NCBI GenBank assembly: GCA_017441065.1
Contig: JAFSAI010000044.1
Span: 1-61,291 of the forward strand
Direction: 5' to 3'
Length of the DNA: 61,291 bases
Source of the DNA: Bacilli bacterium
GTDB lineage: Bacteria > Bacillota_I > Bacilli_A > RF39 > UBA660
This document shows positions 14,592 through 38,550 of the stretch, in pieces; the stretch's first letter is position 1, and the number at the start of each line of letters is the position of its first letter. Under the pieces are notes generated by a model. It saw only the letters and a program-made list of their open reading frames with translations. It was not told the origin of the DNA and did not search any database. Position numbers and translations under genes: made by a program.

Positions 14592-14621
14592 AAAAAAATA
14601 CAATAATCTATAATTATTGTA
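14592..14621 (-). terminator. Terminator of rpoE
   Basis: 9-bp stem TACAATAAT/ATTATTGTA (14613-14621 with 14599-14607) followed by T7 on the minus strand; overlaps the end of rpoE. Confidence 0.8.
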
Positions 14622-15051
14622 CGTTTTCATCTTCATCAATGATAACTAAATCTTTTAAATCATCATCTTCATCATCATTATCATCTAATTCATTATCATA
14701 GAAAATATCTTCATCTTCTTCATTTTCTATTTCTAAATCTTCATCTTCAGGTAGTTCTTCACTTGTATCAATATCTTCTTCATCTTCAACTACTATATTT
14801 TGTAAATGATTTGTAGCTAAATCCCAATATCCTTTTGGAAGTAATACAAATTTTTTATTAATTGAAAGTAGTTCAAAGAAATCCCCAATTCTATCTTCAA
14901 CAGTATTTTCTGGTAATTCTAATACTTTACATACTTTTTTAAACAAATCAAGAAGCTTCATTTTCTTTCCTGCTTGTTCTAAAATTAAATAAGCAATTTC
15001 ATCATATCCCATTGTTTCTAATTCTGCTTTTGATATATCTTTTAAACTCAT
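14614..15051 (-). CDS. rpoE: RNA polymerase delta subunit
   Basis: Delta binds RNA polymerase of low-GC Gram-positives and raises promoter selectivity and recycling. The 145-residue protein has an N-terminal HARE-HTH domain (about residues 1-85, with GYDEIAYLILEQAGKKMKLLDL-like helices) and a C-terminal tail of about 55 residues made almost only of Asp and Glu, which is the signature of the family. AAGGAGATAATT precedes ATG. Confidence 0.95.
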   Translation of the reverse strand: MSLKDISKAELETMGYDEIAYLILEQAGKKMKLLDLFKKVCKVLELPENTVEDRIGDFFELLSINKKFVLLPKGYWDLATNHLQNIVVEDEEDIDTSEELPEDEDLEIENEEDEDIFYDNELDDNDDEDDDLKDLVIIDEDENVQ

Positions 15052-15099
15052 AATTATCTCCTTTTCAAACTCATTATATGCAATTTATTATATATGTTA

Positions 15100-15435
15100 T
15101 TATAATAAATGTATTATTATTCTTTTTTCTTCATCTAATTTATAATTTAATATAATTTTATCTTTATCCTTTATAAAACTACACTCAATTTTATCTTCGA
15201 TATTTATATTATTTTCTTTTAATATATAATTAAATAAAGATTTATTAAAATCTATTTTAAACATAAATTCATTATTTTCTCTTATATAAATTTTATCTTC
15301 TAAATTTATATAATTTGAAGTATTATTATCTTCTTCATATTTAACAAATTTATCTACTATATACTCACACTCAATTTTTTTATCAATGATTATAAAACCA
15401 TTACTTAATAAACTTAAGTTTATTGCTTTTTTTAT
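15100..15435 (-). CDS. Short hypothetical protein with an ATA start codon, possibly DUF1934-like
   Basis: A 111-codon open frame that conventional gene callers would miss: no ATG, GTG or TTG is found before its middle. GAGGTGAT is followed three bases later by ATA (15435-15433), exactly where the start codon should be; the frame is closed upstream by TGA. The product reads like a small beta-barrel: alternating polar and hydrophobic strands such as GFIIIDKKIECEYIV, EFMFKIDFNK and KDKIILNYKLDEEKRIIIHL at the C-terminus, which resembles DUF1934/YwiB proteins. Codon use matches the neighbours. It could be functional with AUA initiation or a gene silenced by an ATG to ATA change. Confidence 0.6.
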   Translation of the reverse strand: MKKAINLSLLSNGFIIIDKKIECEYIVDKFVKYEEDNNTSNYINLEDKIYIRENNEFMFKIDFNKSLFNYILKENNINIEDKIECSFIKDKDKIILNYKLDEEKRIIIHLL

Positions 15436-15452
15436 ATAATCACCTCTTTTTT

Positions 15453-15501
15453 CTAGAAAACTATATCATAACATATATATAATTTCAACATAATTTTCTA
15501 G
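15453..15501. repeat. Inverted repeat in the divergent promoter region
   Basis: CTAGAAAA (15453-15460) and TTTTCTAG (15494-15501) face each other 33 bases apart, between the divergent gene at 15100-15435 and the penicillin-binding protein gene. Could be an operator pair; no T-run follows. Confidence 0.35.
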
Positions 15502-15532: not shown

Positions 15533-17485
15533 TTGAAAGCTTTAAAATTTTTTTCTAAACTTTGTATTTTCAGTTTTGTATCTTTTATTATTTGTTATAT
15601 TGGCATAAATATTTATGCAATGATTATACCTAATTTAAATATTACTAATAATGGAACATATTATTTATTTGATAATAAAGATACCTTAGTATATCAAGGA
15701 AGTAGTACTAGTTCATGGGTGGATTTAAAAGACATTGATGAAGATCTTATAAATGCTGTTATAGCTATTGAAGACAAAAAATTTTATAATCATTTTGGGT
15801 TTGATATCTTGAGAATTGGTAAAGCAATGATTACAAATATTCAAACTGGACATATTGTACAAGGTGCTTCAACAATTACACAACAATTAGTAAAAAATTT
15901 GTATTTAGAATTTGATAAAACTTGGGAAAGAAAAATTAAAGAAGCTTTTTTAACAATTATTACAGAATTACAATATAATAAAGAAGAAATACTAGAAGCT
16001 TATTTAAATACAATTAATTATGGAAATGGCAACTATGGAGTAAGCAATGCCAGTAAATACTATTTTAATAAAGATGTTAGTAATTTATCTCTTGAAGAAG
16101 CTATAATACTTGCAGGTATTCCTAAAAGTCCAAATAAATATAATCCTGTTTCTAACAAAGAAGAATCATTAAAAAGAGCGTCTATCGTTGCTAAAGCATT
16201 ATTAAATAATGAATTTATTAATAATGATACTTATAATAATTTAAATTTTAATAATATTGAAATTTATGGTAAAAATGATAAAAATAATTTACAAATGCTT
16301 ATGTATTATCAAGATGCTGTTTATAAAGAGTTAGAAAGTTTAGGTATTAGTAAAGAAACATTAGAAACTGGTGGACTTAAAGTTTATACAAACTTAGATA
16401 TTGAAAAACAAAGCGCTTTAGAAAAGAATATTTTAAATACTATAACTCAAGATAAAGAATTACAAGTAGCAAGTGTTATTGTTGATCCTGAGACAGGAAA
16501 AATAGAAGCTTTAACTGGTGGTATTGATTATGGTACAAGTCAGTATAATCGCGCTACTGAATCCAAAAGACAAGTTGGTTCTACAATGAAACCATTTTTA
16601 TATTATGCAGCTTTAGAAAATAACTTAACAGCATCATCTAAGTTTAAAAGCGAATATACAATATTTAATATTAACAATAAAGAATCTTATTCTCCAACAA
16701 ACTATAATGATAAATATGCTAATAAAGATATTACTATGGCTGCTGCTATTGCATTTTCTGATAATATATATGCTGTTAAAACTAATTTATTTTTGGGTGT
16801 TGATAGATTAGTAGATACTGCTAAGACTGTTGGAATTAAAGAAAATTTGAGTGCTGTACCATCACTTGCATTAGGTACAGGTGAAATTAATATTTTAGAT
16901 TATGCTACTGGATATACTACTCTAGCAAGTGGTGGTTATAAGAAAGATTTATACTTTATTAGAAAAATTGAAGATAAAGATGGAAATGTTATTTATACAA
17001 AAGAAAACAAAAAAAGTTTAGTACTAAATCCTAATTACGTTTATATCCTAAATGAATTATTAGCTAACACTTCTAGTAGTGCTTTTAAAGACTATACTAG
17101 TGCAACTGCCAGTACAATTGCTAGCAAATTAAGTAGAAAGTATTCTATAAAAACGGGAACTACTGCAAGCGACTATTGGACTGTTGGATATAATAAAGAT
17201 GATTTAATGTTAATATGGATTGGTTATGATAATAATCGAGAATTTACAAAAAGTTATGGTTATATGACAAAAAATATTTGGGCAGATACTATGGAAGAAA
17301 TCCAATCAGATATTTCTAATAATTGGTATGAAACTCCAGATAACGTAGTAGGTGTTATTCTAGATTCTGTTACTGGAGAGGTTACCAATAATGAAGAAAG
17401 GGCTGTAGTATATTATTACTTAAAAGGTAGCGAACCATTAATTAGTAGTGCATCTACTATAGATAATGAAAAAAAGAAGAACTAG
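15533..17485 (+). CDS. Class A penicillin-binding protein (PBP1A-type)
   Basis: A bifunctional peptidoglycan synthase. The 650-residue protein has one N-terminal membrane anchor (about residues 10-35), a GT51 glycosyltransferase domain with catalytic Glu80 (EDKKFYNHFGFD) and GASTITQQLVKNLY at 111-124, and a transpeptidase domain with S350-T-M-K353, SDN in FSDNIYAV and KTGTT near residue 540. It is the only plus-strand gene left of the origin, and so is transcribed against replication. The start is TTG after AGGTGATTTAA. The C-terminus lacks PASTA or long tail domains. Confidence 0.92.
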   Translation: MKALKFFSKLCIFSFVSFIICYIGINIYAMIIPNLNITNNGTYYLFDNKDTLVYQGSSTSSWVDLKDIDEDLINAVIAIEDKKFYNHFGFDILRIGKAMITNIQTGHIVQGASTITQQLVKNLYLEFDKTWERKIKEAFLTIITELQYNKEEILEAYLNTINYGNGNYGVSNASKYYFNKDVSNLSLEEAIILAGIPKSPNKYNPVSNKEESLKRASIVAKALLNNEFINNDTYNNLNFNNIEIYGKNDKNNLQMLMYYQDAVYKELESLGISKETLETGGLKVYTNLDIEKQSALEKNILNTITQDKELQVASVIVDPETGKIEALTGGIDYGTSQYNRATESKRQVGSTMKPFLYYAALENNLTASSKFKSEYTIFNINNKESYSPTNYNDKYANKDITMAAAIAFSDNIYAVKTNLFLGVDRLVDTAKTVGIKENLSAVPSLALGTGEINILDYATGYTTLASGGYKKDLYFIRKIEDKDGNVIYTKENKKSLVLNPNYVYILNELLANTSSSAFKDYTSATASTIASKLSRKYSIKTGTTASDYWTVGYNKDDLMLIWIGYDNNREFTKSYGYMTKNIWADTMEEIQSDISNNWYETPDNVVGVILDSVTGEVTNNEERAVVYYYLKGSEPLISSASTIDNEKKKN

Positions 17486-37484: not shown

Positions 37485-37673
37485 ATGAAAAGTAAGCTAG
37501 GTACTATATTAAAAAGATTAGTATTTGCATTTGGTATTATTTATGGAATAAATGTAATGCTTAAAAATGTCGGAATATACATTCCAATTAATATTATTAC
37601 TATTGGAATAACATCTTTTTTAGGAGTACCTGGTTTATTATCATTATTTACAATCTTCTATATAATTAATTAG
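37485..37673 (+). CDS. bofA: Pro-sigmaK processing inhibitor BofA
   Basis: BofA sits in the outer forespore membrane with SpoIVFA and holds SpoIVFB inactive until sigmaK is needed. The 62-residue protein has two membrane segments and the family pattern: VFAFGIIYGINVMLKNVGIY, then PINIITIGITSFLGVPGLLS with the conserved GxPGLL. The start is ATG 37485 after TTGGTGAT; an earlier TTG in frame would place the ribosome site in the gene. Located after recR as in B. subtilis. Confidence 0.88.
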   Translation: MKSKLGTILKRLVFAFGIIYGINVMLKNVGIYIPINIITIGITSFLGVPGLLSLFTIFYIIN

Positions 37674-37683
37674 GAGGTTTATT

Positions 37684-38550
37684 ATAAATAGTAGTGAGTT
37701 AGAAAAATTAATACAGTATTATAAAGATGGTAAATTATCACACGCTTATTTAATCTCTACAAATAATACTAGGAAATGTATGGAAGTTCTTTTAAAAGTC
37801 ATAAAGAACATTTTTTGTAATGAAGAATATTCAGAAGAATGTAAAAAGTGTTCTTTATGCCATTTAATTGATATTAATAGCCTTCCAAGCTTAAAAATTA
37901 TTGAACCAGATGGAAATTTTATTAAAAAAGATCAAATATTAGAACTTAAAAATTTATTTTCTAAAGATTCTCAATATACAAAGGAAAACATATATGTTAT
38001 AAAAAATTGTGAGAAAATGAATAAAGAATCTGCAAATACAATGTTGAAATTTTTAGAAGAACCAGATGGTAATGTAATAGGGTTCTTTATAACAAATCAT
38101 CAAGATAATGTAATGTCAACAATTCAGAGCAGATGCCAACACATAGATATAGTCTTTGATAATGATTTATATGAAGATTTTAATATAGAAGAAGAAAAAT
38201 ATAATGAACTAAAATCCATATTAGATGAATACTTATATAAAATTGAAGTTGATAGAAAAGAACTTATTTTATATAATAAAACTTATTTAACCGGTCTTTC
38301 AAAAGAAGATATAAAAATATTTTTTCAAATATTATTATCAATATATAAAGGTGAGTTAAATAGAAGATATGGGTTAGAAACTAGAGAAAACATGTATGAT
38401 TTTCTAAGCAAAAGTAAAATAAACAACATTATAAAAAAAGTTAATTTAATAATAGAATTACTTAAAGAGATAAATTATAATGTGAATGTAGATTTACTTC
38501 TTGATAGGTTTGTTATAGAAATGGATGGTATTAATAATGAAACTTTATAG
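37684..38550 (+). CDS. holB: DNA polymerase III delta-prime-like subunit, ATA start codon
   Basis: Clamp-loader subunit related to DnaX. AGGAGG (in the bofA stop region) is followed six bases later by ATA at 37684-37686; the frame then reads NSSELEKLIQYYKDGKLSHAYLI, with SHAYLI being the conserved delta-prime start. The first ATG in frame (37780) would remove 32 residues including this motif, so ATA is the likely start. The 288-residue protein has the zinc motif CKKCSLC, lacks a Walker A (STNNTRKC instead), and keeps ANTMLKFLEEP and IQSRCQHI (SRC). It overlaps ricT at its end. Confidence 0.85.
   Translation: MNSSELEKLIQYYKDGKLSHAYLISTNNTRKCMEVLLKVIKNIFCNEEYSEECKKCSLCHLIDINSLPSLKIIEPDGNFIKKDQILELKNLFSKDSQYTKENIYVIKNCEKMNKESANTMLKFLEEPDGNVIGFFITNHQDNVMSTIQSRCQHIDIVFDNDLYEDFNIEEEKYNELKSILDEYLYKIEVDRKELILYNKTYLTGLSKEDIKIFFQILLSIYKGELNRRYGLETRENMYDFLSKSKINNIIKKVNLIIELLKEINYNVNVDLLLDRFVIEMDGINNETL

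What the first reader, a model, noticed from the sequence alone, without database searches (positions are those of the whole stretch)
15100..15435. Second gene with ATA in start position, missed by standard gene calling
This 111-codon frame has native-looking codon use, an ideal GAGGTGAT and ATA at the right distance, but no usual start. Together with holB it suggests AUA initiation may be tolerated in this organism, or that two ATG to ATA changes were kept. If true, gene catalogues of this lineage lack such genes.
Basis: partly seen in the sequence, partly recalled or inferred. Interest (0 to 1): 0.55.

Follow-up and report, generated by a model that had tools for sequence, protein, structure and literature searches.

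The report
Conserved AUA/AUU/AUC-started ywiB-like gene
A small protein gene in a gut bacterium starts with AUA instead of AUG, and nearly all its sister species keep the same kind of unusual start (AUA, AUU or AUC), which points to deliberately weak translation of a real gene that ordinary gene finders would miss.

Summary
It is a real, conserved gene. It was found in 37 of the 38 genomes held for the genus; the start is ATT, ATA or ATC in 36 of 37, GTG in one, ATG in none. In two species the whole frame holds no ATG, GTG or TTG. A conserved promoter ends about 24 bases upstream, so no earlier start is likely to be transcribed. The predicted structure is a beta-barrel that superposes end to end on B. 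subtilis YwiB (Z 11.7), and the gene sits before rpoE (delta), as DUF1934 genes do in some related families. holB is also AUA/AUU in 30 of 37 genomes, and infC (IF3) is AUA in 30 of 30 read. A 35% sample of the genome, plus two whole-genome pattern scans, gave few further cases, so this is gene-specific and not general tolerance. The kind is known (infC, pcnB, sigR, and S. aureus ccpN and cvfC1). New here are the genes, the lineage and the depth of conservation. IF3-limited translation is inferred.

The parts
15100..15435 (-). ywiB-like (DUF1934-like fold) protein gene, 111 codons plus TAA
   Evidence: open frame; 37 of 38 genus genomes; structure match to 1r0u
15433..15435 (-). AUA start codon; AUU/AUC/AUA in 36 of 37 genus members
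15439..15446 (-). Shine-Dalgarno GAGGTGAT
   Evidence: conserved in relatives; 8-base match seen in 13 of 360 sampled genes with canonical starts
15460..15468 (-). extended -10 element TGATATAGT, ending 24 nt before the start codon
   Evidence: sequence; matched in 34 of the 35 rows with upstream sequence
15483..15488 (-). -35 element TTGAAA, 17 bp from the TATAGT hexamer
   Evidence: sequence; conserved as TTGAA(A/T)
14614..15051 (-). rpoE, RNA polymerase delta subunit, next gene downstream (ordinary ATG)
   Evidence: NCBIfam TIGR04567 44.9 bits, cut-off 42
15533..17485 (+). divergent class A penicillin-binding protein
   Evidence: Pfam PF00912 and PF00905
37684..38550 (+). holB (DNA polymerase III delta'), starts at ATA 37684-37686
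   Evidence: PF13177 142 bits; AUH in 30 of 37 genus genomes
37672..37678 (+). Shine-Dalgarno AGGAGGT of holB

Best explanation
The frame is a working gene for a YwiB-type beta-barrel protein. Translation starts at the AUA codon, decoded by ordinary initiator tRNA and made possible by an unusually strong Shine-Dalgarno at ideal distance. Shown by sequence: the conserved AUH start, SD, promoter and protein. Inferred from known cases: AUH codons are poor initiators that IF3 rejects, so the gene pairs a good promoter and SD with a weak start codon. This keeps the protein low and makes its yield depend on IF3 activity. holB and infC in the same genus use the same device.
For: AUH in 36 of 37 genus members: 35 of 36 (21 ATT, 8 ATA, 6 ATC, 1 GTG) plus G011. 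In 30 of the 35 AUH rows no ATG/GTG/TTG lies between the start and the upstream in-frame stop; in G006, G004, G015 and G031 that stop is 3 codons back; G004 and G029 have no canonical start codon in the whole frame. The promoter places the transcript start roughly 17 nt before the codon (the position is estimated from the -10). The N-terminus is folded protein: first strand at residues 2-11, mean pLDDT 94.9, superposed on YwiB over 108 of 111 residues. dN/dS is 0.33 for codons 2-57. holB is AUH in 30 of 37; infC is AUA in 30 of 30 loci read, of 33 genomes with a match among 38 searched. Precedents: PMC13009471, where AUU/AUA starts gave about 10% of AUG in reporters in poor medium, and PMC5472188, IF3 repression of a GTC start.
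Against: No expression data. IF3 dependence is untested. One species uses GTG (G019), and holB has ATG in 7 of 37, so the weak start is not indispensable. In five of the 35 AUH rows canonical codons exist upstream in frame, though on reading they fall in the promoter or SD. dN/dS for codons 2-22 alone is 0.77, on only 10 changes.
Confidence: 0.8

Rival explanations
1. The AUH codon is an internal Ile codon and translation starts further upstream at a canonical codon.
For: In G003, G016, G022, G027 and G030 (5 of 35) the frame is open upstream and holds ATG, TTG or GTG codons.
Against: In 30 of 35 rows there is none before the stop; in several the stop is 3 or 4 codons back. The upstream codons coincide with the -35, -10 or SD, before or at the predicted transcript start (reading).
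Confidence: 0.04
2. Translation starts at a downstream canonical codon (codon 58 in this genome), giving a short product.
For: An ATG exists at codon 58.
Against: The first downstream canonical codon is at 43 or later, or absent, in 23 of 35 rows, at different places; none at all in G004 and G029. The product would lose half the barrel. In this genome I see no SD before codon 58.
Confidence: 0.03
3. Translation starts at the GTG inside the SD and a frameshift leads into the gene.
For: GAGGTGATT contains GTG in many species.
Against: That frame stops at once in some species (GTG ATT ATA TAA here) and runs on in others, and I saw no common slippery site (reading; not tested by a separate computation).
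Confidence: 0.03
4. Weak start kept by drift: AUG was lost once in the ancestor and the AUH codon works well enough, without regulation.
For: The loss is shared by the genus; holB has ATG in some members and G019 uses GTG, so canonical codons are tolerated.
Against: At least 10 start-codon changes on the holB tree and none to ATG, with a strong SD and promoter kept. A one-base change would restore AUG.
Confidence: 0.2
5. An mRNA hairpin hiding the SD is the main control and the start codon is secondary.
For: In this genome and in G025, G014, G035, G001, G010, G020, G026, G029, G032 and the G022/G016/G027 clade the SD region pairs with downstream coding sequence (z from -2.8 to -6.2); few synonymous changes in codons 2-22.
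Against: No such fold in many lineages; RNAalifold gives no consensus; pair counts do not exceed shuffles.
Confidence: 0.08

Closest known systems
infC (IF3) with AUU/AUA/AUC start; in this genus AUA
   Same: AUH start after a strong SD; conserved across species
   Different: IF3 autoregulates its own gene; the gene here encodes an unrelated barrel protein
ccpN (AUA) and cvfC1 (AUU) of Staphylococcus aureus, PMC13009471 (passages read)
   Same: conserved AUH start with strong or extended SD in Bacillota; cvfC1 is a small first gene of an operon
   Different: those are shown by ribosome profiling and reporters; different genes
sigR GTC start of Streptomyces, PMC5472188 (outline and passages read)
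   Same: non-canonical start with extensive conserved SD, GTC in 32 of 34 species per the paper, repressed by IF3
   Different: GTC codon; IF3 effect shown by experiment
pcnB AUU start of E. coli (named in passages and reference lists of PMC1780047 and PMC13009471; its own paper not seen)
   Same: AUU keeps expression low
   Different: different gene and lineage
B. subtilis YwiB, PDB 1r0u (DUF1934)
   Same: fold over 108 of 111 residues, Z 11.7; DUF1934 genes lie before rpoE in some related families
   Different: 13% identity, no Pfam DUF1934 hit; the DUF1934 genes read in the class have an ATG nearby

Membership tests
Non-canonical AUH-start genes (infC/ccpN kind) | no usable ATG/GTG/TTG at the 5' end of the coding frame | tested here: met
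   30 of 35 AUH rows have none between start and upstream stop; two frames have none at all
Non-canonical AUH-start genes (infC/ccpN kind) | strong or extended SD at proper distance | tested here: met
   GAGGTGAT, 8-base match
Non-canonical AUH-start genes (infC/ccpN kind) | start codon conserved across species as AUH | tested here: met
   36 of 37 genus members
Non-canonical AUH-start genes (infC/ccpN kind) | translation from the codon shown, lower than AUG and IF3-sensitive | not testable with these tools
   needs reporters or ribosome profiling
DUF1934 / YwiB | fold of YwiB | tested here: met
   VIA-align Z 11.7, rmsd 2.5, 108 of 111 aligned to 1r0u; next hit 8.6. Foldseek alone gave no E <= 0.001
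DUF1934 / YwiB | match to Pfam PF09148 | tested here: not met
   no PF09148 hit at this gene in the genus; profile comparison with 14 class members E 0.11
DUF1934 / YwiB | gene position directly upstream of rpoE (lineage-dependent) | tested here: met
   here; same order in G038, G047, G050, G058 by my reading

The most novel reading that the evidence does not exclude
In this genus AUH starts form a small IF3-controlled set: infC, holB (clamp loader delta') and the ywiB-like gene ahead of rpoE. When IF3 is scarce relative to ribosomes all three would rise together, tying a replication protein and a gene beside RNA polymerase delta to the state of translation initiation.
Probability: 0.2. Interest if true: 0.72.

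Novelty: new member of a known kind. Interest (0 to 1): 0.5.

Why it matters
Conserved AUH-started protein genes are rarely documented, and gene callers that allow only ATG, GTG and TTG cannot find them. Here a core-genome gene would be missed or truncated in a genus of uncultured gut Bacilli, and in two species it could not be called at any length. It gives a comparative signature (AUH drifting among A, U and C, strong SD, adjacent promoter, conserved N-terminus) that can be scanned for elsewhere, and it makes the idea of IF3-set expression of holB and ywiB testable.

Tried and rejected
Pfam and NCBIfam scans of the protein and its 36-row family gave nothing meaningful. Profile comparison with class DUF1934 proteins was negative, sequence search of solved structures was negative, and Foldseek had no match at E <= 0.001; identity as YwiB-like rests on VIA-align and gene order.

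SD-hiding hairpin: strong in some species, rejected as a genus-wide feature.

General tolerance of AUA: rejected from the sample and from the AGGAGG..ATA (47 places) and GAGGTG..ATA (28 places) scans of the whole genome (read with 67). The broader GGAGG..ATH scan listed only part of its 209 matches, so weaker SDs and ATT/ATC starts outside the sample were not fully covered.

Literature: AUH starts for holB or ywiB were not found by the searches (listings only); one search listed general AUH papers. This covers only the open library held. PMC5397182 is not held.

Rows dropped: G019 (GTG start) was left out of the RNA alignment A3; dN/dS used 10 close pairs only; the tree left out the first three codons; infC starts were read in 30 of 33 matched genomes.

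Full report
WHAT IS THERE. The frame is on the minus strand. SD GAGGTGAT at 15446-15439, spacer TAT, ATA at 15435-15433, 111 codons, TAA. Upstream, a -35 TTGAAA (15488-15483), a 17 bp spacer and an extended -10 TGATATAGT (15468-15460) leave 24 nt before the start codon. The next gene downstream is rpoE (delta; NCBIfam TIGR04567 over its cut-off); the divergent neighbour is a class A PBP.

CONSERVATION. A protein search of 60 genomes found the frame in 35 of the 36 other genus members sampled, without internal stops, and convincingly in none of the 23 same-class genomes. A profile search found it in the missing one (G011, cut by a contig end) and not in G060, a 38th genus member. So 37 of 38 genus genomes have it. 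Named public records of the same family are MAGs of uncultured Bacilli from 'Lapin' samples and one called SIG200.

START CODON. Lining up the starts: ATT 22 (21 plus G011), ATA 8, ATC 6, GTG 1 (G019), ATG 0. In the G022/G016/G027/G011 clade ATC and ATT stand side by side and either may be the start. Among the 35 AUH rows, 30 have no canonical codon before the upstream stop; the other five (G003, G016, G022, G027, G030) have some, in promoter or SD sequence. The first canonical codon downstream is at codon 43 or later, or absent, in 23 of 35, at codons 22-30 in 11, and at codon 4 in one (G035). G004 and G029 have none in the whole frame. On a tree of 37 holB proteins the start codon of this gene changed at least 10 times.

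PROTEIN. AlphaFold2 on the 36-row family gives an all-beta model, mean pLDDT 94.9, with the first strand at residues 2-11. VIA-align ranks B. subtilis YwiB (1r0u) first, Z 11.7, rmsd 2.5, 108 of 111 residues aligned, 13% identity; the next entry has Z 8.6 over 57 residues. Foldseek alone gave no match at E <= 0.001, Pfam DUF1934 does not match the gene and a profile comparison was negative. DUF1934 genes lie directly before an rpoE-like gene in G038, G047, G050 and G058 (my reading). I call it YwiB-like, a diverged probable DUF1934 member. dN/dS is 0.33 for codons 2-57 and 0.23 for 58-110; codons 2-22 gave too few changes to judge (10 close pairs).

IS IT GENERAL. In 428,153 bases of this genome (window plus 22 stretches) the script kept 404 ORFs, 390 not at an edge. 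Of 18 flagged by the first rule most have an ordinary start nearby on reading. The convincing AUH cases after the stricter scans are infC, holB and this gene; a mobile-element relaxase is plausible and one AUU frame on C29 is unresolved. SD matches of 7 or more bases are seen in 59 of 360 genes with canonical starts, while the three AUH genes have 7, 7 and 8 (my scan favoured strong SDs, so this is biased). Initiator tRNA is ordinary. IF3 passes its family cut-offs.

HOLB AND INFC. holB was found in 37 of 38 genus genomes: 24 ATA, 6 ATT, 7 ATG. Three AUH rows (G020, G026, G032) have a TTG overlapping the SD, and two (G013, G017) a TTG 12 codons up. Many rows have TAG overlapping the SD three codons before the start, which bounds it. 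The 7 class holB genes read have ATG near the 5' end, one of them (G045) from a partial match. infC starts ATA in 30 of 30 read (33 of 38 matched).

MECHANISM. AUH codons pair imperfectly with initiator tRNA, and IF3 destabilises such complexes (PMC8266586 and PMC5472188, passages). In S. aureus conserved AUU/AUA starts with extended SDs gave about 10% of AUG in poor medium (PMC13009471, passages). In Borrelia burgdorferi an AUU-started enzyme was long annotated as a truncated protein (PMC13398362, abstract). The same design here suggests low, IF3-sensitive output. This step is inferred.

RNA STRUCTURE. A fold hiding the SD appears in 13 of the 35 species folded (my count), but consensus folding and pair counts do not support it genus-wide.

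VERDICT. In detail: a conserved gene with an AUH start, ordinary in kind, new as a case.

Noticed in passing
L127 10804 onward (G000:C30): A MobA/VirD2-type relaxase gene (PF03432) whose N-terminus appears to start at ATA after AGGTGAT; a GTG inside the SD is the alternative.
   Followed up: partly
L258, minus strand, about 558 down to 1 (G000:C29): A 186-codon frame opening with ATT seven bases after AAGGAGG, just downstream of another ORF; possible AUU start, no Pfam family.
   Followed up: partly
window 37684 (holB) in G011, G015, G016, G022, G023, G027, G031: holB has ATG, at or one codon beside the AUH position of the others, in 7 of 37 genomes; on the holB tree this can be a single change, though the forks are poorly supported.
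   Followed up: partly
window 15072-15083, minus strand: TTGCATATAATG between the ywiB-like gene and rpoE looks conserved across the genus and may be rpoE's own promoter.
   Followed up: no
window 15370-15432, minus strand (codons 2-22 of the ywiB-like gene): Very few synonymous changes (2 in 10 close pairs) compared with the 3' half; may reflect start-site or RNA constraint.
   Followed up: partly
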